Shown piece after piece: positions 3,191 to 58,033 of a stretch of 64,000 nucleotides of DNA. The stretch lies in contig JAKRSH010000014.1 in assembly GCA_022402465.1 (NCBI GenBank), forward strand, positions 172,929-236,928. The letters are read 5' to 3'. The notes under the pieces are model-generated. The model did not search any database. It saw only the letters and a program-made list of their open reading frames with translations, and was not told where the DNA came from. The stretch's first letter is position 1, and the number at the start of each line of letters is the position of its first letter. The DNA is from Leptospiraceae bacterium. Its GTDB lineage: Bacteria > Spirochaetota > Leptospiria > Leptospirales > Leptospiraceae. The position numbers and the translations under genes are program-made.

Positions 3191-3625
3191 ATGTCAATAG
3201 AATGGAATGATAAATACAAAACAAATATAATAGAAGTTGATACTCAACACAAAAGATTATTTGCTTTAATGAAAGAGCTTGAGACTCTTTATAATGCACA
3301 TAAAGGTTCTCTGGTTGAAAATCATAATACCATCCAAAAAGCAATTAGTGATCTTGAACAATATACAATCAGTCATTTTTTGATTGAAGAAAGAATCATG
3401 GAAGAAAACAACTACCCTGACTTAGAGAATCATAAACTTCAACATGATAAATTTACGGACAAGATTCTTGAGTTCAAGGAAATTTTGAAAGCAAAGAATA
3501 ATTTACAAGAATCAGAATTAGAAGAAAATCTAGATCATATTTTGAAATTCTTAGGAACATGGTTAACAAATCATATTATGATAAAGGATATGGATTATAA
3601 ACCTTTCATTAAACATGTATTATAG
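3191..3625 (+). CDS. Bacteriohemerythrin
   Basis: A 144-residue single-domain hemerythrin, a cytoplasmic four-helix bundle that binds O2 (or NO) at a di-iron site. All expected ligands are visible: H20, H62 with E66 (HFLIEE), H81 and H85 (HKLQH), and H128 with D133 (HIMIKD). The frame is open back to 3158, but the ATG at 3191 has a GGAG-containing leader and begins with the typical MSIEWNDKY family start, so it was chosen. The gene follows the thiolase-like gene closely. Its 3' end overlaps the convergent histidine kinase gene by 6 nt. Possible roles are oxygen storage or sensing; the sequence does not decide between them. Confidence 0.92.
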   Translation: MSIEWNDKYKTNIIEVDTQHKRLFALMKELETLYNAHKGSLVENHNTIQKAISDLEQYTISHFLIEERIMEENNYPDLENHKLQHDKFTDKILEFKEILKAKNNLQESELEENLDHILKFLGTWLTNHIMIKDMDYKPFIKHVL

Positions 3626-5620: not shown

Positions 5621-5683
5621 TTTTATAAACCCATACATTTCCGTTTTTATTTTAAAACTTAGAATAAAGTCTAAAAATAATTT

Positions 5684-43543: not shown

Positions 43544-44275
43544 TTAAGAGGCTAATTTCCAGAGTGCCTCATTCTTCCCTTTTTCCATTAGAGCATTCAT
43601 TGCTTCATGAGTTCTTGCTGATAAGGCCTTCATTCCATCGGCTAAATTCATTCCCAAGAATTCTTCATGATTGATTGCTTCGCCAAACATAACTCTGACT
43701 TTCTTATAAACAACTCTCTTCTTTATCTCACACACTTCCTTAGGCATACCCATAAACGCGCGTAAGATGGTGGGTAGTGGATAGTCAGAAATGGTTTCCT
43801 CAATAGGAACGATTGCACTTGGCATCACATCTACTTTGTTTCGTAAGGAGAAGGCAGCAAATCCATCATGGAAGGGGACCATAGGTGATGAGAAATCGTT
43901 CTTAACCATGTAATCATGACCTTCAGGGAAAATTCCAAGAACATCTCCCTTCTTAAATACCTGTTGGACCTTCTTGATACTTGCCATGGAAATATTCCCA
44001 TCAATCGCCATAGGAATACAACCAGTCTTCTCAACTAGATCTTTAAACAAAGGAATTCGCATTGTATAATCAGCTGCTATCCATGAAATGTATCTTGGAA
44101 AAATTGCACCAATCACAAAAGGATCCATATCAGATCTATGGTTGCAGGTAAGAATTAATTTGCCAGAAGGTTGGATATGATGAAAACCTAACACATCTGT
44201 TTGAACAGCCATATGAAAAAATGGTGTAACAAATTTCTTAATTCGACCTACAGTCTTTTTCGCTGAGTCATCCAT
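43544..44275 (-). CDS. 1-acyl-glycerol-3-phosphate acyltransferase-like (PlsC)
   Basis: A 243-residue acyltransferase. Block I is NHRSDMDPF (H46, D51: the HxxxxD catalytic pair) and block III is FPEGHD, with IPLFKDLVEKTGCIPM between. It should transfer an acyl group to lysophosphatidate or a related acceptor at the inner membrane. The protein has little membrane-spanning sequence and is probably peripherally attached. Only 3 nt separate it from the upstream small gene. Confidence 0.9.
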   Translation of the reverse strand: MDDSAKKTVGRIKKFVTPFFHMAVQTDVLGFHHIQPSGKLILTCNHRSDMDPFVIGAIFPRYISWIAADYTMRIPLFKDLVEKTGCIPMAIDGNISMASIKKVQQVFKKGDVLGIFPEGHDYMVKNDFSSPMVPFHDGFAAFSLRNKVDVMPSAIVPIEETISDYPLPTILRAFMGMPKEVCEIKKRVVYKKVRVMFGEAINHEEFLGMNLADGMKALSARTHEAMNALMEKGKNEALWKLAS

Positions 44276-44278
44276 TCT

Positions 44279-44584
44279 TTATTCGTCCCCTAAAATCTTA
44301 TTCCACCATTTTTGGTTTTTCTCTTTAGAAGAAGTAGAATCTCCTGATTTGGGAGTGGATGAGTCAGCAGATTGAGACTTAGAAGAATAGGATTGTTGTT
44401 CAAATTGCTCCATTTTCCTTCTAGCTGCTTGGGAGGATTGGGGAATTGCTTTACGGATTTCTTCTATTTCTCTCTGAGCGCTCGCACTTGATTTTATAAA
44501 AGTTCTTATTTCATCCCATTGGTCATCAATATCATTGCCATATCGTACAAAATTCATTAAATCGATTCGATCGTAATTCGCCAT
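44279..44584 (-). CDS. Small hypothetical protein
   Basis: A 101-residue hydrophilic protein. The first 55 residues are helical with many charges, and the remainder is a Ser/Lys/Gln-rich low-complexity tail. No signal or membrane segment. It is the first gene of the operon that continues with PlsC. Function unknown. Confidence 0.65.
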   Translation of the reverse strand: MANYDRIDLMNFVRYGNDIDDQWDEIRTFIKSSASAQREIEEIRKAIPQSSQAARRKMEQFEQQSYSSKSQSADSSTPKSGDSTSSKEKNQKWWNKILGDE

Positions 44585-44737
44585 AACTATTCCTATATCT
44601 CCATCAAAACCTTGCTACAAAGAGAATAGGGAATCAACTTAATTTTTATTTTCAGAAAGAAATTCTATTCAGATCCATTGAAGAATGAGGGGTATAATTT
44701 CCGAAATTTAAAATAAAAAAAGAATTAAGGAAGATAG

Positions 44738-44908
44738 ATGGAAATCAGACATAACTCAGAAAATAAGGAAGCAGAGCCGAATCCAAAAAAGGATACAGCT
44801 CATGGAAAACTCATTCCTTTTCCTAAAAAGCTCCCAGTAAGTTCTTCAAAAATTAAGGTGCTCTTTCAATCTGTCTTTCAGGGAGAAAATAAATCCGAAC
44901 TCTTATGA
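44738..44908 (+). CDS. Small ORF, 56 residues, overlapping next gene
   Basis: An ATG at 44738 preceded by AAGGAAG opens a 56-codon frame that ends with TGA overlapping the ATG of the lipoprotein gene at 44905 (ATGA). A good ribosome binding site and the coupled end both argue for a real gene. The product is basic and Lys/Pro-rich (KLIPFPKKLPVSSSK) with a short hydrophobic end and no recognised domain. It may serve mainly as a coupled leader gene for the lipoprotein. Confidence 0.6.
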   Translation: MEIRHNSENKEAEPNPKKDTAHGKLIPFPKKLPVSSSKIKVLFQSVFQGENKSELL

Positions 44909-45396
44909 AATTCAATTCTAGCTTTCACAAAACCATCATCCTTGCACTATGCATTATTTCTCTGCAATACTGTTCAACCTTCGGTTTGGTATCCTCCGAA
45001 GAACGCAAGTTTTCACAGGAATCGGAAAACAAATCCTACACTGCAAAAAGATCCTTTCTCAAAGCAAAACAATGGTTTACTTATAGACTTGAGGGTACAA
45101 AAAGCAAAATCATTCTGGATAGTCCCAGTGAAGGAAAACTGGAAGGAATAGGTTTCTTAAAATGCCGAGTGCCCTATGGAGTGGAAGAGGTTGATGTTGA
45201 GTTTCATGAATTCAAATATAAGTTTCAATTGAATGAACCCAAGGTTACTTTTTCAGTTGAAGATATCTATTCCTATTCTCTAGATCCTAATGATATAGTT
45301 ATCAGCTACGGTCCACGCAACAAAAGAGAAGCAGTAGCTACGATCCGTTTGTGCTTTGAGCCACTTGCAGAAGATTTGTTTACTTATATCCAATAA
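44905..45396 (+). CDS. Putative lipoprotein, DUF4468-like
   Basis: A 163-residue lipoprotein with lipobox LQYC. The mature part (residues about 45-163) has alternating strands and one helix, in the manner of DUF4468/TBP-like fold proteins (FLKAKQWFTYRL, FKYKFQLNEPKVTF). It resembles in plan the lipoprotein at 58893. Translation is coupled to the 56-codon gene in front. Function unknown. Confidence 0.75.
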   Translation: MKFNSSFHKTIILALCIISLQYCSTFGLVSSEERKFSQESENKSYTAKRSFLKAKQWFTYRLEGTKSKIILDSPSEGKLEGIGFLKCRVPYGVEEVDVEFHEFKYKFQLNEPKVTFSVEDIYSYSLDPNDIVISYGPRNKREAVATIRLCFEPLAEDLFTYIQ

Positions 45397-45416
45397 AATT
45401 ATGAATAAGAAATGAA

Positions 45417-46832
45417 TTAAGAAGACTGTTCTTTCCGTAATTTTCTTTGGTTCTTTTTCTCTAACAACAATTGAATCCTCTTGTGGTTCTCTGAATTAAG
45501 AGGCATCCATAAGAATACAATTGCACCTATGATAAAAAAGAATCCAACTACTGGTCCAAAGACTACAGCCAAACGCCATCCAACCTCTGCAGTCTGTTCT
45601 GAACTTCCCTGCACTAAGCCAATGATATCTAAAATGAATCCTGAGACAGCAAGTCCTATGGCTTGGGCAAATTTGGTTCCCATTTTCCAGAAACCAAAAT
45701 ACAAACCTTCCTTGCTTTCACCAGTCATAAGCTCATCATAATCAACAATATCAGCAACCAGTGAATCCAATAGAAAAATGGAACCAGCACAAATCCCACC
45801 TACTATAGCAGTGATTAAAGGATAGTAAGAATTTCCATATGGATACAAGGGATAGGCAATCATAGTAATCAATCCAAGCATCAATATTCCAAAAAAAGCG
45901 GGTCTTTTCTTCCCATAACGATTGGATAGTAAAACCCAAATTGGAATGGAAACTATAATTACCACAAAGAATGGAAATAAAATCTTGAGAACTACATCAG
46001 ACTCTTTTAAACCCAATCGAAATTTATAATAAAAAAGTGCAATTGATGTGTTAAAAGTTCGCCCGAAGGTAGCAATGATAAAGGCAAGAATCAAGGGGAA
46101 GAAAACTTTATTGCGAAACACTTGAGAGAAATTCTTTAAGAAAACTGACAAACTAATATTTGTTTGCTGCTTAGAATGGATTTTTTGCGGAATGATTTTG
46201 GAACCTGTCACGAAAAAAGTAGCAAGCCCCGAAAAGCAGACCATTCCACCTATGGCCCAAGCAGAAATAGATCTTGCATATTTTATATTTTCTTTATTGG
46301 ATTCATCACCCAAAGATTGCAGTATGATAGCAGGAAGAATCATACCGAATAATATCCCAATATTTGAGAAGAACAATCTCCAACCAAATATTTCCGTTCG
46401 ATCTGAACTCTCATTGGAAAGTTCTCCACCTAGTGCTAGGTGGGGAACAGAAAGAATAGTCATAGCCGTATTAACAATAACATAAACAACTAATAGATAA
46501 GTAAAAAGTAAATATTGCTCTTGGATATTAGGAGCTGTGAACAAAAAGCCTATCGAAAGACCAAGAAATATAGAGCCTGCAAAAATATAAGGTCTACGAC
46601 TCCCCCATCGACTTCTTGTGCGATCTGAAATCAATCCCATCAAAGGATCCGAGACAGCATCCCAAATTACGGAGATTGCTAAAGCCAAACCAGCCAGGCT
46701 AGAATTCAGTCCCAAGACTTGGGTGAAATGCTCGAGTAGATAGAGCTGTGTAATAATTTGGGTAGCAGTAATTCCCATTTCCGCAAAACCAAATCCGGCT
46801 TTAATCTTTCTAGGTAATTTAGAATTGGACAT
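45417..46832 (-). CDS. MFS transporter of GPH (sugar:cation symporter) type
   Basis: A 471-residue membrane protein with about 12 helices. The N-terminal half shows the glycoside-pentoside-hexuronide (MelB-like) signature: WDAVSDPLMGLISDRTRSRWGSR, including the Asp pair used in cation coupling. It probably moves a sugar or related solute with Na+ or H+. Substrate cannot be read. No sugar genes lie beside it. Confidence 0.9.
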   Translation of the reverse strand: MSNSKLPRKIKAGFGFAEMGITATQIITQLYLLEHFTQVLGLNSSLAGLALAISVIWDAVSDPLMGLISDRTRSRWGSRRPYIFAGSIFLGLSIGFLFTAPNIQEQYLLFTYLLVVYVIVNTAMTILSVPHLALGGELSNESSDRTEIFGWRLFFSNIGILFGMILPAIILQSLGDESNKENIKYARSISAWAIGGMVCFSGLATFFVTGSKIIPQKIHSKQQTNISLSVFLKNFSQVFRNKVFFPLILAFIIATFGRTFNTSIALFYYKFRLGLKESDVVLKILFPFFVVIIVSIPIWVLLSNRYGKKRPAFFGILMLGLITMIAYPLYPYGNSYYPLITAIVGGICAGSIFLLDSLVADIVDYDELMTGESKEGLYFGFWKMGTKFAQAIGLAVSGFILDIIGLVQGSSEQTAEVGWRLAVVFGPVVGFFFIIGAIVFLWMPLNSENHKRIQLLLEKKNQRKLRKEQSS

Positions 46833-47008
46833 ATATTTTATAAGATTAGCAAGAATCGATTTTGATTCTTATAACATAGAGTATTTAGCGTAATGTTTTG
46901 TATATACTTATCTTTTCAATAAATGCATAGTTACAAATTTAAATTATTCTGCCTTGAAGGAAAATTAGTATGGTTCTTTTTTATACAATTTAGTTATTGT
47001 TTATCTAT

Positions 47009-48256
47009 ATGAGCAATCAGCTAAAAGTTTTATTTTTTGATTGGATGTCAGAGAATGGTGCAAAATATGATAAGCCAGAAGACTATATCTATTATTTTAT
47101 CCAGTTCCTTAATTCAAACGGATTGCAAATCAATAGAGTCTCTTTGGGTGGGGCTGCCTTACATCCTGAAATTGAAGCCTTCGGTTTCACATTTACAGAT
47201 GAAATCCTTGGAGAGTCAACAGTCCCTTTTACAGATCCCCTTATGGTAAGTAGTATTTACGTGAATTATCCCAAAGGGAATGTTTTAAAAATGAGGTTTA
47301 GAGCAGGAATTCGTATGGGAGAAGGATTCAAGAATAGCCCCATCCCGGTCCTTTGGGAAAAAAAAGAACCAATCCATATTCCAATTCATAAAACAGAATC
47401 AAACGAGTATCCCATCATAGAAGATCTCAGAAAAAAGGGAGCTACCGAATACTACGCACAACCCTTGTTACTCAATCAAGGTGTGATGTCATATATTAGT
47501 TTATCTTCCAATCTAAAATCTGGATTCAATGAAGAAACAATTTCAACTCTAAAACAAATTCTAGAGATATTTGCAATTGGATGGTTACGCTTTCGCCAAA
47601 ATGAAATGATCAGTTCTTTGCTATCTCTGTATTTGGGTCCCATGACAGGTCCACAAGTTCTCGCAGGAAAAATACGCAGAGGTGATGTAGAGACAAAAGA
47701 AGCAGTTATATGGTTCTCAGATATTCGAGATTATACATCCATCTCAAGTAATTATCCTACGGAAGACGTAATTCAGTGGCTGAATGACTACTACCAAGAA
47801 CAAATTTCCAACATACACAAATTTGGTGGTGAAGTATTAAAAATCATGGGCGATGGTATGCTTGCGATCTTTCCAACTGATGAAAGTCGAAATATTAAAA
47901 CTATGGCTAGAAGAGCAGTGATTGCATATTTACAATCTAAGGAATTCTTAAAGAATCAAAATCTTATCCGTAAGAAAGAATCGAAACCAATTCTTGCACA
48001 TGGGATCGCCCTCCATCACGGAAAAGTTCAATACGGCAACATTGGATCACAAGATCGTTTAGATTTCACTATCATTGGTAGCGATGTGAATTTGACATCT
48101 AGAATCTCTTCGCACTGCGGAAAATACGAAAGAGATCTATTGCTATCAGCTTCTTTTGCAAAGCTCGTGAAGAATCATACAATCTTAATTGAAGAAAATG
48201 TTAACTTTAAAGGTCTTACAAAACCAGAAAATATTTATAGTCTTTCATCAAGATAG
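47009..48256 (+). CDS. Soluble class III adenylate/guanylate cyclase
   Basis: About 415 residues without membrane helix. The N-terminal 190 residues form a sensor-like domain, and residues about 215-415 are the catalytic domain. Both metal Asps (WFSDIRDYTS and IMGDGMLAIF) and the transition-state Asn/Arg (TIIGSDVNLTSRI) are present, so it should work as a homodimer, in contrast to the pair at 49950-53644. A TTG at 46997 is in frame; the ATG at 47009 was preferred. Makes cAMP or cGMP. Confidence 0.9.
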   Translation: MSNQLKVLFFDWMSENGAKYDKPEDYIYYFIQFLNSNGLQINRVSLGGAALHPEIEAFGFTFTDEILGESTVPFTDPLMVSSIYVNYPKGNVLKMRFRAGIRMGEGFKNSPIPVLWEKKEPIHIPIHKTESNEYPIIEDLRKKGATEYYAQPLLLNQGVMSYISLSSNLKSGFNEETISTLKQILEIFAIGWLRFRQNEMISSLLSLYLGPMTGPQVLAGKIRRGDVETKEAVIWFSDIRDYTSISSNYPTEDVIQWLNDYYQEQISNIHKFGGEVLKIMGDGMLAIFPTDESRNIKTMARRAVIAYLQSKEFLKNQNLIRKKESKPILAHGIALHHGKVQYGNIGSQDRLDFTIIGSDVNLTSRISSHCGKYERDLLLSASFAKLVKNHTILIEENVNFKGLTKPENIYSLSSR

Positions 48257-48298
48257 ATTAAAGAAGATATCTATTAACATCGATATTCTTTTCTAAAA

Positions 48299-49135
48299 TT
48301 AAAATGATTTAATTTCACCGAAGGCAAATCTATCTGTCTTCATTAAGATATCTTGGAGGTTTGCACCTTTTCCTTTCAATGGATCTATCGCTTTAATCAG
48401 TTTTGCTCGCATCTCATACAACTCATCACGATTGTATTTCTTTGAACCTTTAACAAAATCGATTTGATTTAGTTGAATTTGTGTATCTTGCTTAGGGTTA
48501 AAAGCTCCATTTAGTTCTGAACATTGGTTGCAGACTCCTTCTTTTCGTATCAAGGCACATCGATCATCAAAGATTTGAACCATCGTTTTCCTTGCGTCTT
48601 GCAGAAGATGTTTTGTTATATCAATTGATTTTTCCAAGATCAATGATATATCTTTAACTGAGAAATCATATACATCCTTTAATATCAAAGCTATCTGTCT
48701 TTCGATTGGAAGAGTTTTGGACATGCAAGTAAAACAATGATTGATGTGATCTCGTATTTCAAAGGCTTCTTCTTCCGATTCATGTCGTACTTTTTGAATT
48801 TTATCCCAAACACTTGGATCACTCATTGCCAGAGCTTTGCCTTGGGATTTTATATCTACCGTCCAACGTTTCCGTTGTCTCAACAAATCATATGCTAGGT
48901 TTGTAGCGATTGAAAATACCCAAGTCTTAATGGAAGATTTATTCTGGAAAGATTTAAGATTGGAATATGCTTTGAGATAGCTTTCTTGACTTATATCTTC
49001 CGCTTCATCAAAATCTGTCAGCAATCGATACAAATACGATTTTAATTGGTCATGAAATCCTAAAAATATCTTTTGGAAAGCATTTGCATCACCGCCGATT
49101 GCGAGATCCAATAATTCTTGGTAAGTTGAATCCAT
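48299..49135 (-). CDS. ECF-type sigma factor with Cys-rich C-terminal part
   Basis: About 278 residues. Region 2 is clear (YLYRLLTDFDEAEDISQESYLKAY, TWVFSIATNLAYDLLR), and region 4 covers ALILKDVYDFSVKDISLILEKS with DITKHLLQDAR. Unusual Cys pairs HCFTC and RCALIRKEGVCNQCSELNG lie in the linker and right after region 4, likely binding zinc or acting as redox switch. A C-terminal extension of about 70 residues follows. The ATG at 49135 with AGGGGAT upstream was preferred over 49168. No anti-sigma gene is seen; the divergent lipoprotein at 49285 may be a target. Confidence 0.88.
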   Translation of the reverse strand: MDSTYQELLDLAIGGDANAFQKIFLGFHDQLKSYLYRLLTDFDEAEDISQESYLKAYSNLKSFQNKSSIKTWVFSIATNLAYDLLRQRKRWTVDIKSQGKALAMSDPSVWDKIQKVRHESEEEAFEIRDHINHCFTCMSKTLPIERQIALILKDVYDFSVKDISLILEKSIDITKHLLQDARKTMVQIFDDRCALIRKEGVCNQCSELNGAFNPKQDTQIQLNQIDFVKGSKKYNRDELYEMRAKLIKAIDPLKGKGANLQDILMKTDRFAFGEIKSF

Positions 49136-49260
49136 AATTTTATCCCCTTTTTTGTAAAATTTTCTCAAGCAATTATTTTGCTATTAATTTCAGACGATGG
49201 AGCCGTTGAATACGAGCGAAAATCAATCTCGCCCATTTTATGATCCTCATTCGTCGCAAA

Positions 49261-49278
49261 CCTAAACGAATTTAGGAG
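49261..49278 (+). promoter_or_regulatory. Hairpin overlapping the ribosome binding site
   Basis: CCTAAA - CGAA - TTTAGG forms a 6-bp hairpin with a tetraloop whose 3' arm includes the first bases of the AGGAGAA Shine-Dalgarno in front of the ATG at 49285. Translation could be dampened when the hairpin forms. The stem is short and could be coincidental. Confidence 0.4.
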
Positions 49279-49284
49279 AATTTT

Positions 49285-49929
49285 ATGAAACCAATAACAA
49301 CAATTGCTACCAATAATTGTAAAACCAAAAGAACCTTAGCCAATGTAGTGCTTATTCTTATGCTTATCCTTGGGATAGTAGCCTGCCAATCCAACCAAAA
49401 CTCTCAGTTAGAAATCAACCAACTCAAAGCATTGAATGGAACTTATGTAGATCCAGTTCCCTATGAATATGGACAAGGTGTTTATGGAAAGAGAGAGTTT
49501 ACTTTTAAGAACGGAAGCTGGACTTTGGATTTTGTATTGGCATTAGATCCCAAATTGGATAACAAAGTCTTTCGATTTAGAACATTGGGTTCTTATGAAA
49601 TCTTAAGACCTTCTGAGAATCAACCTCAGTCTTATGAAGCAAATTTCAAAGAAGACAAGAAATTTGTTACTTTGCTGACCCAAGATAAGGGACTCGCGCA
49701 AGCATTTGGACTCTCAAATTGCGGATTGCAACCGACAGTTGAAAAAGATATTTCAATATCAGGATGTTCTGTTTGGAAATCAGTCAAGGATTGTCCCATC
49801 GACCATGATCTCGTGAAACTTGATAAAGATGGCAAACTCTATTTTGGAATTAGACCCAAGGATAATAATATGTGCCAAGAAGAATTTAGACCCACATCTC
49901 TAACACCAGCAACGATTAGAATGAAATAA
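49285..49929 (+). CDS. Putative lipoprotein divergent from ECF sigma gene
   Basis: A 214-residue protein with a signal region (VVLILMLILGIVAC, lipobox GIVAC) and a beta-rich mature part (GTYVDPVPYEYGQGVYGKREF, GSWTLDFVLALDP). Four later Cys residues (SNCGL, SGCS, KDC, NMC) may form two disulfides. It resembles APCDD1-like lipoproteins in its first half, not certain. The 149-nt space to the sigma gene is a candidate for control by that sigma. Confidence 0.72.
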   Translation: MKPITTIATNNCKTKRTLANVVLILMLILGIVACQSNQNSQLEINQLKALNGTYVDPVPYEYGQGVYGKREFTFKNGSWTLDFVLALDPKLDNKVFRFRTLGSYEILRPSENQPQSYEANFKEDKKFVTLLTQDKGLAQAFGLSNCGLQPTVEKDISISGCSVWKSVKDCPIDHDLVKLDKDGKLYFGIRPKDNNMCQEEFRPTSLTPATIRMK

Positions 49930-49949
49930 AGATTAATAAATAGAAGCTT

Positions 49950-52091
49950 TTAATCTTCAAAGGAGCTTGAAGTTTCCCAATCAGGTGGTGCACCGTATTT
50001 AAGATATTTCTGTGATCTTTCATAATACAATCTTGCCGCCTCATCTTGGTCGATTTGGGAAATCATTGTTTCGAAAAGATTAGAAGATTCTTGAAAATCT
50101 CCTAATAGAAAATAATAAACTGCACGTTCAAAGATTTCTTTGTATTCAATCTTTAAATTAGATGTCTCATCTAAACCTTCTAAAAGAATTTCGGCAATTC
50201 CAATCGGCTCTGCTCCTTTAAATAATCTTACAGAATCTACAATTCGATACGGAAATCGATCAAAACTATCTGATGCATAAAGAGCATCAACAGATACTAG
50301 AATCTTAGCTCCGTATTTTTTTGTTAGACCTTCTATCACTGAGGCAAGATAAATAGACTCTGATACAGCAGATGTCTGCATTCTTTCCTCTTCTCCCAAA
50401 ATTCCTAAAAGTGTCTCACCGTGATGAATACCAATTCCTATAGAAATGGCTTGGTTTCCTTTTTTAATACGATAGAAATTGTAATCATTTACCACACGGT
50501 GCATTTCAATTGCAGTATCTATAGCCTTGTTTGTTCCTTCTGTAAATAGAGCAATCACTGCATCTCCAATGAATTTTTCAATATGTCCATTGTTTTGAGT
50601 TATTACAGGAACAACTCTTTTAAGATATGCATTCAGAAAACGAAAGTTATCTTGGGGACTAAATTGTTCTGAAAAACTTGTGAAACCTCTAATATCAGAT
50701 GAGAGTATTGATAAATTCTTTGAAGAAAAATCACCACACTTCAATTTGAGAATATTAGAATCATTTATTAATTTAATATACTCTCTGGAAACAAATTTCG
50801 AATAATTCCGATTTAGTTGCTCAAGATCTTGAGAAATTTTTTGGTATTCTTCACTTAGTTCAAGGGCATGATTAAATGTTTCTGAATTTCTCTTCGATAA
50901 AATAATAGACTGAATCACAAAAAATAAAAATAAACCTATTGGTAGTTTTAAATCATCTTCTATGATTCTTGAGCCAGCTAATAAGTCATGAACTGCAAAA
51001 AGCATAAGTATAACAGTTCCAACTAATAATAATTTAGATTGATTTCTGCGATAATGATTGATTTTTAAAATTGCATAAGTACTTAAAAATATTGCTAAGC
51101 CAACAATTGCATTATTTAAGTATAGAATTGAGGTAAAAAAATCAGGAGGCGTTAAAAGTGTAATGATAGCTGATAATAAGCTAGCATAAAAGACTAGTTT
51201 TGATCCAAGTCTTTGCACATCATTTGGATACATTTTTCGTAAATATTCAAGAAATACAGGAGCAAGTATAGGCGTAGTTGCATAGTCCAACTTAACTAAT
51301 AATTCCCAAGAAATATTTGGAATAAAGTAAGTAATATAGAAATTATCTAGAATAAAAATTCTTAAAGCGTTTATAAAACAAAATATAGAAAAATACAAAT
51401 AACTTTGAATTTGATCTCGAATAAAAAATAAAATAAGATGAAAGAAACCCATTGTTAAAATTGATCCCATCACAAGGAGTTCAAAGGCAGCATACAAGAT
51501 CGAATAATCATAAATTATTTCCTCACTACCAAACTCTATTGGATAACGAAATCCTCCTCTAGCGTGATGAAAATTACTTACTGTTAGTAAAATTTCTGCA
51601 TGAGAGTCTTTAGGCTTGAATGAAACATAATTTACTTTATATTGCGGTGTCGATAATGCTTTTGTCTCTCCTACAACTCCTGCTGAGGCGAATTTTATTC
51701 GATTGATATAAAAATTATAAGCTGTGCTTTGATTTTTGATTTTGAAAAAATATTTTTGATCTTTTTTTAAATTGTTAATTCGTAATCTATAGCTTGCATA
51801 TCCGTTTGATTTATTCTCACTTGGATTTATTTTATTCCAACTTGATGGAACATGAGTAATCAAAGGATTTTTATTTTTAGAATCCAAATCTTGCCAATCA
51901 TTGTGAATATTCCAATAAATTTCCCACTCACCATCCAATAAAATAACTTGATCATTTGTGAGTTCAGGAAGATTTAATATTCCATCCTTTATCTGAATTT
52001 CTTTATAAGATCTACAATTATTTGAAAAAATAAAAATACAAAAACAAAATAAGCTAATAAAGAAACTTCGCAATTTCACTTGGATTCCCAT
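49950..52091 (-). CDS. 7TMR-DISM membrane cyclase, metal-site subunit
   Basis: A 713-residue protein: lipoprotein-like signal (FSNNC), DISMED2 periplasmic domain (about 35-185), seven helices (about 200-400), a coiled coil, a class III cyclase domain (about 455-640) and a short TPR-like tail. Metal Asps D466 (SSDIRGF) and D510 (FIGDAV) are intact. The transition-state residues are lost: the canonical VNxAxR is IYLASV, with Tyr581 for Asn and Val585 for Arg. Alone it should lack one half of the active site. The ATG at 52091 has AAGGAA upstream and overlaps the end of the partner gene by 16 nt; a GTG at 52079 would give a 4-nt overlap. Confidence 0.88.
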   Translation of the reverse strand: MGIQVKLRSFFISLFCFCIFIFSNNCRSYKEIQIKDGILNLPELTNDQVILLDGEWEIYWNIHNDWQDLDSKNKNPLITHVPSSWNKINPSENKSNGYASYRLRINNLKKDQKYFFKIKNQSTAYNFYINRIKFASAGVVGETKALSTPQYKVNYVSFKPKDSHAEILLTVSNFHHARGGFRYPIEFGSEEIIYDYSILYAAFELLVMGSILTMGFFHLILFFIRDQIQSYLYFSIFCFINALRIFILDNFYITYFIPNISWELLVKLDYATTPILAPVFLEYLRKMYPNDVQRLGSKLVFYASLLSAIITLLTPPDFFTSILYLNNAIVGLAIFLSTYAILKINHYRRNQSKLLLVGTVILMLFAVHDLLAGSRIIEDDLKLPIGLFLFFVIQSIILSKRNSETFNHALELSEEYQKISQDLEQLNRNYSKFVSREYIKLINDSNILKLKCGDFSSKNLSILSSDIRGFTSFSEQFSPQDNFRFLNAYLKRVVPVITQNNGHIEKFIGDAVIALFTEGTNKAIDTAIEMHRVVNDYNFYRIKKGNQAISIGIGIHHGETLLGILGEEERMQTSAVSESIYLASVIEGLTKKYGAKILVSVDALYASDSFDRFPYRIVDSVRLFKGAEPIGIAEILLEGLDETSNLKIEYKEIFERAVYYFLLGDFQESSNLFETMISQIDQDEAARLYYERSQKYLKYGAPPDWETSSSFED

Positions 52092-53644
52092 TGGTGTATT
52101 CCTTTGAAATCATCGCCAGATCCAGTTTCGAGAAAATATTTTGCTCTTTCAAAATACATTTGAGCTGCCTTATCTCCAGAATTGATCTTCAATACTTTTT
52201 TAAAATGTTCCATGGCTAATGCAAAATCTGCTTTTATGTAACTTAAAATTCCTTCTTCAAAATCAAATTTAGTTTCAATTTTCAAATCTGTTAGGAGATC
52301 TATTCTAGGAATTAAAATTTCACCTATTGAGATATGAATGGTTTTGCCTTTAACTCTCACCATATCTAACATTCTATAATTTATTTCATGAATAGAATTG
52401 CATTTGTATAAGGATGGAAGGCTTATGAGTATACGAGCTCCGTATTTTTCCGTTAAACCTTGAATTCTACTAGCTAAATTAACTGTATCTGATATAACCG
52501 TAAGTTCTTGTCGAGACTCATCTCCTATAATACCTATACGAGTGCTACCATAGTGCATACCACAACCGCATTCTATAGGAAGATAGCCTGTTTTCTTTCT
52601 ATGAATATTGTATATCTCAATTTCCCACTGCAATTGAATTGCTGCTTTAACTGCATCATCTGGGGATTCCGGAAATAAAGATAGAATCGTATTATCAATG
52701 AATTTATCTATTATTCCATTGTTATTTTGAATCGAAGGAGAAACTCGAGAAATATATGAGTTTATAAATTTATAAATATTCTCTGATGGAATTCCTCTTA
52801 CAATTTTCCAAAAATCTTGGATCTGTGTAAATTGTATGGTCAGCTCTTTCTCAGTATTTTCACCCAGATGTAATTCTTCATGAAAATTCGAATTTAAAAT
52901 ATTTAAGAATTTCTTAGGAACAAACTTTTCATAAGTTCTATTGAAGAGTTCAGCTAAATTATTTGAATTCTTTATTTCATCCGATAGAATTTCTGTGCGT
53001 ATAAAAGATTGATTCATTCTTCTGGCTAAAATATAAGACTGAATACCAAAAAATAAAAAAATAGAAAATTGAATTAAAAATGTTTCGTAACCAAGAATCT
53101 TCCACTCAAAAGAATTCTTTAAAGCTGAAATGAGTAGAATCAATAATCCAAAAGTAAATAATTTATAATCTTCTAATTTTTTAAAATAAACTTGAAAACC
53201 AAGAAATACAAAATACGAACTGAAAATTATCGTGATGCCTAAGTTTATGTATGAATTAAATGAAGGAAGATAATAGAAGAAAAATAAATGAAAACAAACA
53301 AAAATCATAAAAAGATAATTTAAACTTTGAATTAACTTCTTAGAAATTAAGTTTTGATACAAAGAATGGATTAATCGCAGAAGTATGTAGATAGAAAAAA
53401 TACTTAAAAGAATATCTAAAGCATTTAAATAATTTAATCTTAATAAATCAATCTTGAAGGGTAGAATCGGAAGACTGACATTCAACAATCTTAATGCAAT
53501 AACAAAACTAAATAAACTAAAATAAAAAGATTGCTTTTCTGTTTTTTGGTAGAAATACAAAATAAAAAAATACAATCCAAGGATGAATAGCGATCCAAAT
53601 AATATTAAATTTAATGCAAAAGTTGGGAATATTTCTTCATTCAT
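52076..53644 (-). CDS. 7TM membrane cyclase, transition-state-site subunit
   Basis: A 522-residue paralogue of the downstream cyclase, without signal peptide or periplasmic sensor. It has seven helices (about 10-205), a coiled coil, a class III cyclase domain (about 265-450) and the same TPR-like tail. Both metal Asps are replaced: Q274 (FTQIQDF) and N318 (FIDNTI). The base- and transition-state residues are kept: K314, T382 and N389 with R393 (ISDTVNLASRI). It therefore supplies what the downstream protein lacks. Its stop lies inside the start region of that gene, so the two are translated together. A role as C2-like half of a heterodimer is inferred. Confidence 0.88.
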   Translation of the reverse strand: MNEEIFPTFALNLILFGSLFILGLYFFILYFYQKTEKQSFYFSLFSFVIALRLLNVSLPILPFKIDLLRLNYLNALDILLSIFSIYILLRLIHSLYQNLISKKLIQSLNYLFMIFVCFHLFFFYYLPSFNSYINLGITIIFSSYFVFLGFQVYFKKLEDYKLFTFGLLILLISALKNSFEWKILGYETFLIQFSIFLFFGIQSYILARRMNQSFIRTEILSDEIKNSNNLAELFNRTYEKFVPKKFLNILNSNFHEELHLGENTEKELTIQFTQIQDFWKIVRGIPSENIYKFINSYISRVSPSIQNNNGIIDKFIDNTILSLFPESPDDAVKAAIQLQWEIEIYNIHRKKTGYLPIECGCGMHYGSTRIGIIGDESRQELTVISDTVNLASRIQGLTEKYGARILISLPSLYKCNSIHEINYRMLDMVRVKGKTIHISIGEILIPRIDLLTDLKIETKFDFEEGILSYIKADFALAMEHFKKVLKINSGDKAAQMYFERAKYFLETGSGDDFKGIHQWESK

Positions 53645-53723
53645 TGTAGATTTTTTATCTTTCTGCCATATTTAAAAATAGAGAGATTATATTATAATAT
53701 TAAAGAACTAATTTAGAATTAAA

Positions 53724-54635
53724 TTATTTATAAATTGTGTTCAACCAATTAATGCACACTTTTGCTAGATCTTCCCCGCAATCTTCTTGGAGAAAATGTC
53801 CACCACCTTTTATAGTCGTATGAGGTTGTCCTTTGGCACCAGGAATTTTTCTCCGAAAAAATAAATCTGCTCGATTCATAATTGGATCTTGATCACTAAA
53901 TGCAGTCAAGAAAGGTATATTCCAATTAGAATATACTTCCCATGCCTTTTTATTTGCTTCTGATGCTGGATCATTCGGACTATCCGGAACTAAGGCAGGA
54001 AAAATTCTTGCCGCTTCCTTATAAGATTCATCTGGAAATGGTGCGTCATAGGCTTTGATAGTTTCAGGTGAGATCTCTTTATAACAACCGTTTTTGATAA
54101 TTTTTCCAATAGGCAGACGTTTAACATTTTGAGAAAAACTTCTCCATTCATAGAAAGCATCAGGTAATTTATTATCTCCCGTTGGTAAGAAGGTGTTTGC
54201 TGTGGTAATGGAATGAAAGAGATTTTGATTTTCTGCAGCCATTCTGAGACCGAGTAAACCTCCCCAATCTTGGCAGATCAAATTGATCCCAGTTAATTGC
54301 AATTCTTGGACAAAATGAACCAACCATTCAATATGAATTGCGTAATTAAAAACCTCTCGGTTTAAGGGTTTGTCACTTTTCCCAAAACCTATTAAATCTG
54401 GAGCAATAGAACGATATCCTGCTTCTGTAAATAATGGAATCATTTTTCTGTAAAGATATGACCAGGATGGTTCACCATGTAACATTAAAATAATTTTATC
54501 TGAGGCTCTATTCTCATCTATATAATGCATTCTAAGATTCCCAGGATTTACTTGAAGATAATTGTCCTTGAAATTGTATCCAGGTAAGTTAGCAAATCTT
54601 TCTTCAGGTGTTCTTTTAAATTCTATTTGTTCCAT
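53724..54635 (-). CDS. Haloalkane dehalogenase-like alpha/beta hydrolase
   Basis: A 303-residue alpha/beta hydrolase with an Asp nucleophile: D123 in CQDWGG, whose W124 serves as halide-binding Trp in haloalkane dehalogenases. HGEPSWSYLYR forms the oxyanion region, FSDQDPI carries the acid and KGGGHFLQED the base His. The pattern fits the HLD-I branch; epoxide hydrolases share the fold but need cap-domain Tyr residues that I cannot place. No signal peptide. Monocistronic, about 80 nt from the cyclase operon. Confidence 0.85.
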   Translation of the reverse strand: MEQIEFKRTPEERFANLPGYNFKDNYLQVNPGNLRMHYIDENRASDKIILMLHGEPSWSYLYRKMIPLFTEAGYRSIAPDLIGFGKSDKPLNREVFNYAIHIEWLVHFVQELQLTGINLICQDWGGLLGLRMAAENQNLFHSITTANTFLPTGDNKLPDAFYEWRSFSQNVKRLPIGKIIKNGCYKEISPETIKAYDAPFPDESYKEAARIFPALVPDSPNDPASEANKKAWEVYSNWNIPFLTAFSDQDPIMNRADLFFRRKIPGAKGQPHTTIKGGGHFLQEDCGEDLAKVCINWLNTIYK

Positions 54636-54791
54636 TTGTACCCAAGTTTAACTTTTAGAATTTTAAGTTCAACCAAAAACTATTTTAGATCCATTCGATC
54701 TTAATTTGGAAGGTTTCTAAATTTCTATTCAGATTTTATATATTTAAGCGAAAAATAGATGTCTAAAACATAAACTTCACAGAATTATAAT

Positions 54792-57700
54792 TTGCTTACA
54801 TTTATATCTATACGAAACCCAATATTTGCTTGGATGATGATGATCTCCCTTATTTTCCTAGGAGGATTTTCACTATCGAGAATGAACATTTCCCAAATGC
54901 CGGATGTAGATTTCCCTTTTGTGAATGTGATTGTAAATCTCGATGGAGCAACAGCAAAGGTGATGGAAACCGATGTGGTCGATATCATTGAAGAAGTAAT
55001 ACTCACAGTCGAAGGTGTGAAGGAAATTAAATCCTACTCCAAAGATTACTCTGCAAATATTTCTGTTGAATTGGAATTGAATCGAGATGTAGATGTCGCT
55101 CTCCAAGAAATCCAAACTAAGATTGCGCAAGTTCAGAATAAACTTCCTGTTGATTTAGATCCTCCCATTTTGATGAAATCGAATCCAGAAGATAACCCTA
55201 TCGTTTGGGTTGCTCTAACTTCCGATATACGTTCCAAGAAGGATATGGTTCTTTATGTCAAAGATGTTCTAAAGGATAAATACCAAAAGATTCCAGGTGT
55301 TGGTGAAATTTATCTGGGTGGATATGTAGATCGAACTGTGAATGTATATCTCGATCCTAAGAAACTTTCTCAAAGAGAAATAACTGTTGATGATATTACC
55401 AATACACTTTTAGAACAAAATATTGAAATTCCAGGCGGACGAGTTGAGAACCGCTTAGAAGAGTATGGACTCCGTTCTATTGGCGAAGTTCCAACAGTTG
55501 ATAAATTCCAAGATATCTATTTGAACTCGAGAAGTGGTGTTCCCGTTTATAGTCTTATTAAGTTAGGCGATATTTCCACAATAGAGGATGGCTTAGATGA
55601 TATTCGTAGAATATCTCGTTTTAATGGTTCTCCTTCGATTGGACTAGGAATCAAAAAATTAAAAGGTTACAATGCTGTAGAAATAGCTGACAAGATTAAA
55701 CAAGTAACAATAGAACTTCAAGATTCTCTTCCAGAAGGATATAACTTACAGGTTGCTTCCGATAATACGATTTTCATCCGCGAGTCTATTGGTGAGTTAC
55801 AATTTACGATGCTTCTCTCAGCAATATTGACTGGATTAGTGACTCGATTATTTTTGGGTTCTTGGAAATCAACTTGGAATATTCTTCTCGCAATTCCAAC
55901 TTCAATACTTGGAACTTTTTTCTTTTTGGATATCTTTGGCTTCACTCTAAATACCTTCACCTTACTTGGTTTAACTCTAGCAACAGGAATTGTAGTAGAT
56001 GATGCTATTATGGTATTGGAAAATATTGTTCGCCACCATGAAATGGGTAAATCTTGGAAGGAAGCAGCCTGGAAAGGAACTAAGGAAGTTCAATTTGCAG
56101 CATTGTCTGCCACACTTGCTATCGTTGCCATCTTTCTCCCAGTCGCTTTTATCTCAGGAATTATTGGAAGGTATTTCTTAGAATTTGCAATCACAGTTTC
56201 AGTAGCAGTCTTGCTTTCTCTTTTCGAATCCCTAACCTTTACTCCCATGCGAGCTGCACAATTTAAAAAGTCCGAAGAAAAACTCTCTCGCTTCGATTCC
56301 ATGATGGAAAGAATAATGAACAATATACAAAATAAGTACAAATTGTCCTTAGAATGGTCTCTCTTTCATCCAAAATCTATCATTATTGGTTCCCTAATTT
56401 TATTTATTTTGTCATTGCTGTTTATTATTCCTCTCAAAAAAGAATTTGTCCCAGCGCAAGACACAGGTAGATTCTTGGTTCGCATGAAAGCTCCTGTTGG
56501 TTATTCAATCATTAGAACCGACCAAGAAGTGAGACCAATAGAAGAGTTCATTACTAACAGGAAAGAAATTTTTTCCTATTTCATAGCAGTAGGCGGTGTG
56601 GGTGGTGGAGATGTAAATACGGCAATGATTTATGCTACATTGCAGGATAAAGAGAATCGACCAATCAATCCTAAAACAAATCAGCCAATTACACAAAAGG
56701 AATTTTTTGAAATTTTGCGAGCTGAACTTCCAAAAGTTGCTCCAAGTCTGAAAGTCTCTATCCAAGATTTTTCACTGGGTGGTTTCAGTGCCGGAAGAGG
56801 ATATCCAGTCGAATTGCAAGTAACAGGATCCGATTGGGATACATTATCAGATTCGGCTGAGAAATTGAAAGATCGCTTAGAACAAAGTGGCTATCTAACT
56901 GATGTTGATTCAGACTACAATAAGGGACAGCCAGAACTACGTTTGGTACCTGACAGAAGGTCAGCAGCATTAATGGGTGTCAGTATAGCGAATATAGGAA
57001 ACACTGTAGGAACTTTAATGGGAGGTCGTCGCGCTGGTAAGTTTACGGAAAATGGAAGAACTTATGACGTAAAAGTACGAATTGCACGTAAAGAAGGTGA
57101 AGATCCAAAATCTCTCTATGAAACAAGTGTTAGAAACACTCACGGCGAAATTGTACAATTAAATCGATTATTAAAATTTGAAGAAACCGAATCTCAGAAA
57201 AATATTTCACGTGTTGATAGATCAAGAGCAATTACTATATTCGGAAATCCAAAAGATCCATATTCACAACAGGAAGCAATATTACATTCTCTAGAAATAG
57301 CAAAAGAAGTTCTTCCTAAGACTTACTCCGCTAAGATAACAGGAGCAGCCAAGGCATCTTCAGAATCAATGAATAGCCTAATAGCTGTCTTAGCAGTTGG
57401 AATTTTAATTTCTTATATGATACTTGCATCCCAATTCAATCATCTTCGTCATCCAATTTATATTTTGCTTTCTCTACCTTTTAGTTTTTCAGGGGCTTTG
57501 CTTTGTTTGTATATTTTCAATCAAAGTATCAATGTGTACAGCTTTATCGGATTGATACTTCTTCTTGGCTTAGTCAAAAAGAATTCCATCATACTAGTGG
57601 AATTTATAAACCAAGTAAAAGAAAAAACTTTCAAAAATATCAACAAGATTAAATCTACAAACAAACAATCTTTATCACCATCTAATCAAAAGAAACTGAT

Positions 57701-57938
57701 CCAAGATTGCATCATTGAAGCAAGTCCACTTAGAATTCGTCCTATCCTTATGACAAGTTTAAGTTCTATTGCCGCAGCAATACCTCCCGCACTTGCCATA
57801 GGACCTGGACAGGAGACTCGAATACCTATGGCACTTACGATTCTTGGTGGTATGATTCTCTCTACTTTAGTTACTCTTTATCTCGTTCCAGTAGTTTATG
57901 GTTGGGTGGAAGGGTTTTTTGCGGACAAAAATAGGTAA
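54792..57938 (+). CDS. RND efflux permease (HAE1/AcrB type)
   Basis: A 1048-residue proton-driven exporter with 12 helices and two large periplasmic loops. The helix 4 proton relay is LATGIVVDDAIMVLENIV (two Asps) and the helix 10 Lys lies in GLVKKNSIILVEF. The loop after that helix is longer than usual by about 25 residues (region KTFKNINKIKSTNKQSLS). The start is a TTG at 54792 because an in-frame stop at 54771 leaves no ATG upstream; no good Shine-Dalgarno is visible. No membrane-fusion protein or outer-membrane channel gene is adjacent, so it must recruit partners encoded elsewhere. Confidence 0.92.
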   Translation: MLTFISIRNPIFAWMMMISLIFLGGFSLSRMNISQMPDVDFPFVNVIVNLDGATAKVMETDVVDIIEEVILTVEGVKEIKSYSKDYSANISVELELNRDVDVALQEIQTKIAQVQNKLPVDLDPPILMKSNPEDNPIVWVALTSDIRSKKDMVLYVKDVLKDKYQKIPGVGEIYLGGYVDRTVNVYLDPKKLSQREITVDDITNTLLEQNIEIPGGRVENRLEEYGLRSIGEVPTVDKFQDIYLNSRSGVPVYSLIKLGDISTIEDGLDDIRRISRFNGSPSIGLGIKKLKGYNAVEIADKIKQVTIELQDSLPEGYNLQVASDNTIFIRESIGELQFTMLLSAILTGLVTRLFLGSWKSTWNILLAIPTSILGTFFFLDIFGFTLNTFTLLGLTLATGIVVDDAIMVLENIVRHHEMGKSWKEAAWKGTKEVQFAALSATLAIVAIFLPVAFISGIIGRYFLEFAITVSVAVLLSLFESLTFTPMRAAQFKKSEEKLSRFDSMMERIMNNIQNKYKLSLEWSLFHPKSIIIGSLILFILSLLFIIPLKKEFVPAQDTGRFLVRMKAPVGYSIIRTDQEVRPIEEFITNRKEIFSYFIAVGGVGGGDVNTAMIYATLQDKENRPINPKTNQPITQKEFFEILRAELPKVAPSLKVSIQDFSLGGFSAGRGYPVELQVTGSDWDTLSDSAEKLKDRLEQSGYLTDVDSDYNKGQPELRLVPDRRSAALMGVSIANIGNTVGTLMGGRRAGKFTENGRTYDVKVRIARKEGEDPKSLYETSVRNTHGEIVQLNRLLKFEETESQKNISRVDRSRAITIFGNPKDPYSQQEAILHSLEIAKEVLPKTYSAKITGAAKASSESMNSLIAVLAVGILISYMILASQFNHLRHPIYILLSLPFSFSGALLCLYIFNQSINVYSFIGLILLLGLVKKNSIILVEFINQVKEKTFKNINKIKSTNKQSLSPSNQKKLIQDCIIEASPLRIRPILMTSLSSIAAAIPPALAIGPGQETRIPMALTILGGMILSTLVTLYLVPVVYGWVEGFFADKNR

Positions 57939-57949
57939 TATATTATTTT

Positions 57950-58033
57950 GGGCGCCTTTACCGGCTCTCCCTCGACGAGGGCGCCCCAGCACCATTTAGC
58001 GATGCAAAGCTGATCGTTAGAAATGGTGCTGGG
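57950..58033. repeat. GC-rich hairpin element, copy 1
   Basis: Two adjoining inverted repeats of strikingly high GC in an AT-rich genome. First, GGGCGCC (57950-57956) pairs with GGCGCCC (57980-57986). Then CCCAGCACCATTT (57985-57997) pairs perfectly with AAATGGTGCTGGG (58021-58033) around a 23-base loop that is itself partly self-complementary. The second hairpin recurs at 61513-61557 with the same arm and loop length. No T tract follows, so it is not an ordinary terminator. The intergenic stretch 57939-58332 contains this element, the composite repeat after it and no gene. Confidence 0.85.

What the first reader, a model, noticed from the sequence alone, without database searches (positions are those of the whole stretch)
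49950..53644. Complementary half-sites in two coupled membrane cyclases: a likely obligate heterodimer
Class III cyclases build each active site from two monomers: one gives two metal Asps, the other gives Asn and Arg for the transition state. In the 713-residue protein D466 and D510 are intact but Asn and Arg have become Y581 and V585. In the 522-residue protein the Asps are Q274 and N318, while T382, N389 and R393 are kept. Neither homodimer should work, but a heterodimer would have exactly one complete site, as in mammalian C1/C2. The genes overlap by 16 nt, which favours equal synthesis. Only one partner has a periplasmic DISM sensor. I know of no described bacterial membrane receptor cyclase split this way between two 7TM proteins.
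Basis: partly seen in the sequence, partly recalled or inferred. Interest (0 to 1): 0.92.

Follow-up and report, generated by a model that had tools for sequence, protein, structure and literature searches.

The report
Spirochaete split-site heterodimeric adenylate cyclases
Two overlapping genes in a Leptospira-like bacterium each encode a membrane cyclase in which a different half of the active-site residues has been replaced, so the two proteins are predicted to make a signal molecule, likely cAMP, only as a pair, an arrangement known from animals and fungi that appears to have arisen repeatedly in spirochaetes and is found there twice as one continuous gene.

Summary
Both proteins are 7TMR-DISM receptors with class III cyclase domains. 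The 713-aa protein keeps both metal Asps (D466, D510) but has Y581/V585 for Asn/Arg. The 522-aa protein has Q274/N318 for the Asps but keeps K314, T382, N389, R393 and K434. The split holds in every orthologue cluster examined, the window's included: 19 of 19 "N-type" lack the second Asp and keep the other half; 26 of 26 "D-type" keep both Asps and lack Asn and Arg.

I fetched 30 more complementary pairs from spirochaetes; two are single ORFs (7TM-cyclase-7TM-cyclase, 1314 and 1272 aa), the layout of mammalian membrane adenylyl cyclases. A single common split is rejected (AU p = 1.8e-5 and 6e-4); at least two, probably three or more, origins are inferred. [quoted passage not shown]

The sensor-less partner is local: in 16 of 19 clusters the N-type protein is 704-721 aa, long enough for its own sensor. 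Heterodimerisation and activity are predicted, not measured.

The parts
52076..53644 (-). N-type subunit, 522 aa: 7TM + class III cyclase domain that keeps the Asn/Arg half and lacks the metal Asps; upstream gene
49950..52091 (-). D-type subunit, 713 aa: N-terminal beta-rich domain + 7TM + class III cyclase domain that keeps the metal Asps and lacks Asn/Arg; downstream gene
52076..52091 (-). 16-nt overlap of the two genes (translational coupling inferred)
53021..53614 (-). 7TMR-DISM_7TM of the N-type subunit (residues 11-208)
   Evidence: 38.3 bits, cut-off 29; seven long helices in the model
52316..52852 (-). cyclase domain of the N-type subunit (about residues 265-443)
   Evidence: class III fold
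52823..52825 (-). Q274 at the first metal-Asp position
52691..52693 (-). N318 at the second metal-Asp position
52466..52501 (-). T382, N389 and R393: retained base- and transition-state-side residues
52343..52345 (-). K434 of VKGK, triphosphate-positioning Lys, kept in 19 of 19 N-type clusters
51522..52019 (-). N-terminal beta-rich putative periplasmic sensor of the D-type subunit (about residues 25-190)
   Evidence: model; no Pfam name
50889..51488 (-). 7TMR-DISM_7TM of the D-type subunit (residues 202-401)
   Evidence: 79 bits
50172..50720 (-). cyclase domain of the D-type subunit (about residues 458-640)
   Evidence: class III fold
50694..50696 (-). D466, first metal Asp, kept (26 of 26 clusters)
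50562..50564 (-). D510, second metal Asp, kept (26 of 26 clusters)
50349..50351 (-). Y581 at the Asn position (Asn lost in 26 of 26 clusters)
50337..50339 (-). V585 at the Arg position (Arg lost in 26 of 26 clusters)

Best explanation
The two overlapping genes encode homologous 7TM receptor cyclases in which complementary halves of the active-site residues are replaced, and they are predicted to work only as a heterodimer with a single composite ATP-cyclising site. The 713-aa D-type chain would give the two metal Asps; the 522-aa N-type chain would give the adenine-binding Lys/Thr, the ribose-orienting Asn, the transition-state Arg and the triphosphate Lys, so the likely product is cAMP. Either homodimer would lack one half in both of its sites. 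The second interface pocket of the heterodimer lacks both halves and could be inert or allosteric (speculative), like the forskolin pocket of mammalian enzymes (recalled). Shown by sequence: the residues, the overlap, the conserved split, its recurrence in other spirochaetes, the two single-ORF forms. Inferred: tandem duplication of a complete 7TMR-DISM cyclase, complementary decay, then fixation because the copies depend on each other, at least twice and probably three or more times. Untested: dimerisation, activity, product, ligand.
For: Residue assignment by sequence and models; both domains keep the class III fold, with matches to CyaC bound to Rp-ATPalphaS (1wc1) among the best. Split kept in 19 of 19 and 26 of 26 clusters; retained positions invariant, lost ones drift (Asn to G/Y/H/M; Arg to S/I/V/T/H; second Asp to S/N). 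The active site takes Asps from one chain and Asn, Arg, Lys from the other (PMC2576301, passages). Leptospira N and D clades are sisters (SH-aLRT 99) among complete cyclases in three trees. Thirty other pairs of neighbouring genes or fused halves are complementary; none of the 36 pairs examined lost the same half in both copies with the other half intact. AU rejects one origin. Triphosphate Lys: Lys/Arg in 29 of 30 N-type, 5 of 30 D-type. The D-type profile finds C1 regions (recalled ranges) of AC5/8/9 and sGC alpha (1.7e-7) above sGC beta-1 (0.0056); the N-type profile's only mammalian match up to E 0.01 is the stretch of AC10 aligned to its Asn/Arg part.
Against: No biochemical data; a complex could not be modelled. 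Orphans: N-type L242 and D-type L259 have no adjacent partner. Five pairs (L305-L309) have lost both halves in both genes, so some such pairs are not enzymes. L141 (a MAG labelled Fibrobacter) pairs a complete cyclase with one lacking Asn and the adenine Lys but not Arg. Some losses are partial: the D half of fused L225 keeps Arg, three more D-types (L296, L298, L301) have Lys for Arg; the N-type of L304 also lacks the adenine and triphosphate residues. The beta-4 Arg is kept in nearly all of both types and does not discriminate; 21 of 26 Leptospira D-types keep a Lys at the triphosphate position. Homodimeric receptors (ANP receptor) also match the D-type profile, so the profile bias is weak evidence. 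Adjacency in the Leptospira orthologues is not seen directly; only shared contig lengths are.
Confidence: 0.85

Rival explanations
1. The pair is not an enzyme: both chains are pseudo-cyclases that signal by protein contact, or regulate another cyclase of the cell.
For: Five pairs (L305-L309) have lost both halves in both genes yet are kept side by side; in the tree (two of the five used) their genes fall in the D and N lineages of a split pair.
Against: In the window's orthologues the retained halves are invariant (19 of 19; 26 of 26) while the lost halves drift, as expected if one composite site is still selected. The dead pairs used in the tree form a separate clade beside L304.
Confidence: 0.08
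2. Each chain pairs with other complete cyclases of the cell (30 further cyclase domains), so the partnership is promiscuous rather than obligate.
For: 32 cyclase domains in the genome; two half-site genes elsewhere lack a neighbour (L242, L259).
Against: Overlapping genes; six of the 18 other N-type clusters share the length of their longest contig with a D-type cluster (only the longest contig is listed, so the rest is uninformative); fused forms. Complete partners would not force reciprocal loss.
Confidence: 0.05
3. The split arose once in an ancestral spirochaete; lineage-wise sister relations of N and D copies come from gene conversion or long-branch effects, not repeated origin.
For: Same gene order (N first) in 29 of 30 other pairs; long branches leave L106, L246 and L263 unplaced, and in the first tree the N and D copies of the lineage with fused members are not sisters; the second treponeme-type lineage is sister only at 84 and unresolved.
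Against: AU rejects all N (p = 1.8e-5) or all D (p = 6e-4) rows as one clade (quick tree, three lineages, longest branches left out); different residues and Asps are lost in each lineage. It concerns history only, not mechanism.
Confidence: 0.15

Closest known systems
Mammalian membrane adenylyl cyclases (AC1-AC9; TM1-C1-TM2-C2 pseudoheterodimers)
   Same: One composite active site with metal Asps from one domain and Asn/Arg/Lys from the other (chain roles in PMC2576301, passages; C1/C2 assignment recalled). The fused ORFs L225 and L226 have the same layout.
   Different: 7TMR-DISM membrane parts with N-terminal sensor domains instead of 6TM; in 29 of 30 other pairs and the window the Asn/Arg half comes first, the reverse of C1-C2 (recalled); separate origin inferred from the nesting of both copies among 7TMR-DISM cyclases. 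In the window two genes, not one.
Soluble guanylyl cyclase alpha/beta
   Same: Heterodimer of homologous chains (PMC2576301, passages); the D-type profile matches alpha better than beta-1.
   Different: Soluble NO receptor using GTP. The bacterial chains are membrane receptors with the Lys/Thr pair of adenylate cyclases.
NeoR/RGC heterodimeric rhodopsin-guanylyl cyclases of Rhizoclosmatium globosum
   Same: Membrane receptor cyclases in which RGC1 and RGC2 work only upon heterodimerisation with RGC3 (PMC7655827, abstract start in the listing).
   Different: Fungal, rhodopsin sensor, cGMP; half-sites of the partners not compared here.
Bacterial homodimeric class III cyclases (Rv1625c/Cya, CyaC, CyaB)
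   Same: Same catalytic fold and positions.
   Different: Described as homodimers with two equal sites (PMC9552081, PMC9433096, passages); either chain here as a homodimer would lack one half in both sites.
Complete 7TMR-DISM adenylate cyclases of spirochaetes
   Same: Same architecture; nearest rows to the Leptospira pair in the trees.
   Different: Complete sites (39 of 46 cyclase domains without a neighbouring cyclase in the loci).

Membership tests
Class III nucleotidyl cyclases (PF00211) | Cyclase homology domain | tested here: met
   Both proteins above the Pfam cut-off; class III fold in both models.
Class III nucleotidyl cyclases (PF00211) | Complete set of metal Asps, Asn and Arg in one chain (homodimeric type) | tested here: not met
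   713 aa: Y581/V585; 522 aa: Q274/N318.
7TMR-DISM receptors | PF07695 seven-helix membrane domain | tested here: met
   79 and 38.3 bits against a cut-off of 29; seven long helices in both models.
7TMR-DISM receptors | Extracellular DISM domain before the 7TM | tested here: inconclusive
   713 aa: beta-rich domain in the model, no Pfam match; 522 aa: absent.
Heterodimeric cyclases with one composite site (mammalian AC / sGC kind) | Complementary half-sites on two homologous chains | tested here: met
   45 of 45 clusters, the window's two included, and 30 further pairs.
Heterodimeric cyclases with one composite site (mammalian AC / sGC kind) | Chains bind each other and only the heterodimer is active | not testable with these tools
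Mammalian-type pseudoheterodimer (TM-C-TM-C in one chain) | Both halves in one polypeptide | tested here: not met
   Two genes in the window. Met in relatives L225 (1314 aa) and L226 (1272 aa).
Mammalian-type pseudoheterodimer (TM-C-TM-C in one chain) | Common descent with the metazoan enzymes | not tested
   No mammalian rows in the trees; the nesting of the Leptospira N and D copies among complete 7TMR-DISM cyclases speaks for separate origin.
Adenylate (not guanylate) cyclase | Lys and Asp/Thr at the base-recognising positions of the Asn/Arg chain (residue roles recalled) | tested here: met
   K314 and T382 in 19 of 19 N-type clusters; product not measured.

The most novel reading that the evidence does not exclude
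Bacteria invented the mammalian-type adenylyl cyclase on their own, repeatedly: in spirochaetes a 7TM receptor cyclase was duplicated in tandem, its two copies lost opposite halves of the active site and became an obligate two-input receptor enzyme, in at least three lineages, and in two genomes the pair was then fused into one chain, as in the ancestry of the animal enzymes. The useless second pocket would be free to become a regulatory site.
Probability: 0.65. Interest if true: 0.93.

Novelty: new variant of a known kind. Interest (0 to 1): 0.88.

Why it matters
Bacterial class III cyclases are described as homodimers, and a fused dimeric form as unknown in bacteria (PMC9552081, passages). 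The same paper asks what a duplicated, fused cyclase gains. Spirochaetes would offer replicate natural experiments: complete single cyclases, two-gene split pairs, fused pairs and decayed pairs within one protein family. It would also mean that a number of spirochaete genes annotated as adenylate cyclases encode subunits that are inactive alone.

Tried and rejected
Misassigned positions: rejected by alignments and models. A degenerate gene of one strain: rejected, since 45 of 45 clusters agree and the sensor-less 522-aa form recurs at 73% identity (P0002). Tandem arrangement alone causing decay: neighbouring cyclases with all four residues exist in cyanobacterial loci L111 and L113 (their sensors not examined). 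Fusions as frame errors: in the 240-270 nt around each junction both other frames of L225 and L226 are interrupted by stops; L225 lies in a one-contig genome, L226 in one of about 120 contigs, so L226 is less certain; L225 has an in-frame Met at the start of its second half, so a separate second product is possible. Random loss: pairs lacking the same half were not seen, but independent origins are few, so I give no p-value. The first genome-contig scan found nothing. Genomes of the Leptospira species named did not turn up, so adjacency and co-loss across that genus could not be counted. Rfam: no match in 44000-58000; promoter-like sites at chance level (21 against a mean of 24.4). One search's script paired a partial cyclase at the edge of L231 with the N-type gene; corrected by hand: 36 pairs = 29 N-then-D, 1 D-then-N, 5 dead, 1 complete-then-D; 46 single domains; the edge fragment left out (119 domains in 82 loci). 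The 36 are not a random sample: places came from the hits, partly because two hits lay side by side, and searches scored only the best two and four candidates of a genome. In L313 and L316 the D-type ORF is short (496, 473 aa) and 574-637 nt downstream; not examined further. Papers: searches (all hits listed; 20 of 68, 15 of 312, 15 of 37, 15 of 193 listed); no listed title, abstract start or passage read describes such a pair in bacteria. PMC2447327 (actinobacterial survey) is counted with 'heterodimer' three times in the listing, but only its abstract and references could be read, so it is unchecked. Subscription papers and preprints are not held.
Full report
WHAT IS THERE. Two genes on the minus strand overlap by 16 nt: 53644-52076 (522 aa) and 52091-49950 (713 aa). 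Each has a 7TMR-DISM membrane domain and a Guanylate_cyc domain above Pfam cut-offs. The 713-aa chain keeps D466 and D510 but has Y581 and V585 at the Asn and Arg positions; the 522-aa chain has Q274 and N318 at the Asp positions and keeps K314, T382, N389, R393 and K434. AF2 models (pLDDT 85.0 and 84.3) put these residues on the expected elements, and both domains match class III cyclases in the PDB.

THE SPLIT IS CONSERVED. I took the best 19 clusters as orthologues of the 522-aa chain (N-type), and the best nine plus 17 new ones as orthologues of the 713-aa chain (D-type), cutting at the drop in score; the window's own proteins are among them, and every organism named in these rows is a Leptospira. 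N-type: second Asp lost in 19 of 19 (S 14, N 5), first Asp lost in 5 of 19; adenine Lys, Thr, Asn, Arg and triphosphate Lys kept in 19 of 19. D-type: both Asps in 26 of 26; Asn lost in 26 of 26 (G 20, Y 3, H 2, M 1); Arg lost in 26 of 26 (S 18, I 3, V 2, T 2, H 1). Of 19 less related cyclases taken as an outgroup, 18 keep Asp, Asp, Asn and Arg; P0131 does not. Retained halves are frozen while lost halves drift. The window's genome has 32 cyclase domains; of the other 30, 28 have all four residues and two (L028, L335, read by eye) have only Arg replaced by Lys.

CO-OCCURRENCE. Six of the 18 other N-type clusters have the same longest-contig length as a D-type cluster (548297; 4028707, Leptospira sp. 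GIMC2001; 12019; 21756; 2416981, L. brenneri; 270657, L. idonii). I read that as one contig each; in the 12-kb case it means near adjacency, but I did not see the DNA. Over the seven matched pairs, the window's included, N and D identities run in step (r = 0.95, 21 comparisons), as shared descent also predicts. The N-type protein is 704-721 aa in 16 of 19 clusters and 511-522 aa in three, so the sensor-less form looks like a local loss; elsewhere both chains are long enough to carry a sensor.

THE SAME THING ELSEWHERE. A scan of fetched loci turned up L106, a Spirochaetaceae MAG with two overlapping 7TMR-DISM cyclases: the first has lost the first Asp, the second Asn and Arg. Searches of 392 genomes of the window's phylum (137 with a match at E 1e-40) and of 145 genomes of one of its families (48 with a match at E 1e-30), followed by region fetches, gave, with L106 and L141, 36 co-directional neighbouring or fused pairs (L231 corrected by hand): 29 N-type then D-type, one in the reverse order (L304), five with both halves lost in both genes (L305-L309), and one complete cyclase followed by one lacking Asn and the adenine Lys (L141, a MAG labelled Fibrobacter). 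None has the same half lost in both with the other intact. Of 46 cyclase domains without a neighbour, 39 are complete; the other seven are L239 and L240 (dead), L242 (N-type), L259 (D-type), and L297, L322 and L325 near contig ends. The sample was chosen from hits, partly for lying side by side, so these are not frequencies. L263 is the weakest pair: its D-type has no Pfam cyclase match and its N-type no Pfam 7TM match.

FUSED PAIRS. L225 (1314 aa, one-contig genome) and L226 (1272 aa) are single ORFs with two 7TMR-DISM and two cyclase domains. In L225 the first domain lacks both Asps and the second has Asp for Asn (Arg kept); in L226 the first lacks both Asps and the second has Asp and Thr for Asn and Arg. 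L225's nearest relative in the tree, L228, is two overlapping genes, and the two junctions differ, which suggests two fusions or one fusion and a reversal.

A TEST NOT BUILT INTO THE CLASSES. In a class III site the chain that gives Asn and Arg also gives a Lys from the beta7-beta8 loop, while the Asp chain gives an Arg from beta-4 (PMC2576301, passages). Over the 30 other complementary pairs the Lys position is Lys/Arg in 29 of 30 N-type and 5 of 30 D-type domains (8 D-type domains have no residue aligned there); the beta-4 Arg is kept in 29 of 30 and 28 of 30, so it does not discriminate. In the Leptospira clusters the Lys is kept in 19 of 19 N-type but also in 21 of 26 D-type. By profile, the D-type alignment finds C1 regions (recalled ranges) of AC5, AC8 and AC9 and sGC alpha above sGC beta-1, but also homodimeric receptor cyclases; the N-type alignment's only mammalian match up to E 0.01 is AC10, over the stretch aligned to its Asn/Arg part.

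HISTORY. Leptospira N and D copies are sister clades (SH-aLRT 99) among complete cyclases in all three trees. In the 47-row tree without the longest branches, the lineage with fused members also has N and D as sisters (99), and a second lineage of the same family does so weakly (84); holding all N or all D rows together is rejected (AU p = 1.8e-5; 6e-4). In the 69-row tree the fused lineage's N and D clades together are one side of a branch (100), while the second lineage's are close but unresolved. In the first, 75-row tree neither of these two is resolved as sisters; long branches (L263, L246 and others) were in it. L106, L246 and L263 are not counted. So more than one origin is well supported; three or more is my reading. 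All trees are quick ones. In one search the two dead pairs included have their first gene in the D lineage and their second in the N lineage beside L304, so they appear to descend from a split pair that lost its remaining halves in both chains.

MECHANISM. A receptor homodimer has two equal sites. Loss of the metal half in one copy and of the Asn/Arg half in the other leaves one working site only in the mixed dimer; overlapping genes would favour equal supply and early pairing. The pair would then read its periplasmic sensors (two in most species, one in the window's) through two 7TM bundles and signalling helices into one ATP-cyclising site. Dimerisation, activity, product and ligand are inferred.

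KNOWN OR NEW. [quoted passage not shown] a 2025 paper describes bacterial class III ACs as typically monomers that must dimerise (PMC12505454, passages). Paper searches (four of them only in part listed) showed no report of split pairs in bacteria; PMC2447327 could be read only in abstract and references. Heterodimeric cyclases are known in animals and fungi, so this is a new variant of a known kind, with repeated separate origin as its most surprising claim.

Noticed in passing
L305-L309 (G293, G449, G282, G383, G457): Side-by-side 7TMR-DISM-type cyclase pairs in which both genes have lost both halves of the site; in the tree (two of five used) they group with the reversed split pair L304, so they look like a receptor pair that dropped catalysis in both chains.
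   Followed up: partly
L304 969-4894 (G438): The only split pair in the fetched set with the D-type gene first; its N-type gene also lacks the adenine Lys/Thr and the triphosphate Lys.
   Followed up: partly
L225 2444-6385; L226 2528-6343: Single ORFs 7TM-cyclase-7TM-cyclase; a signal-peptide-like stretch at the start of the second half has become an internal hydrophobic segment.
   Followed up: yes
L239 1752-5234; L240 1778-5260: 1161-aa ORFs with a cyclase-like C-terminus lacking the catalytic residues; in L239 the 7TMR-DISM domain lies at 664-861 and the rest has no Pfam match.
   Followed up: no
L313 1252-5221; L316 1714-5722: Split pairs in which the D-type ORF is short (496 and 473 aa) and starts several hundred nt after the N-type gene; not examined.
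   Followed up: no
window 49950-52091, residue 26: An invariant Cys near the N-terminus of the D-type chain (C26 in 9 of 9 rows of A2) and of the S-clade-like N-type chain (C18 in 14 of 14 rows of A3) resembles a lipobox, so the sensors may be lipid-anchored.
   Followed up: no
L231 (G180:C1:173500-181000): G180's contig of 2,843,201 bases equals, from memory, the length of the Treponema denticola ATCC 35405 genome; part of a further cyclase lies just upstream of its split pair.
   Followed up: no
window 3620-5638 (-): A second 7TMR-DISM receptor in the window, with a histidine kinase output.
   Followed up: no
window 46997-48256 (+): A 419-aa class III cyclase with a complete site (D, K, D, T, N, R) near the split pair, on the other strand.
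   Followed up: partly
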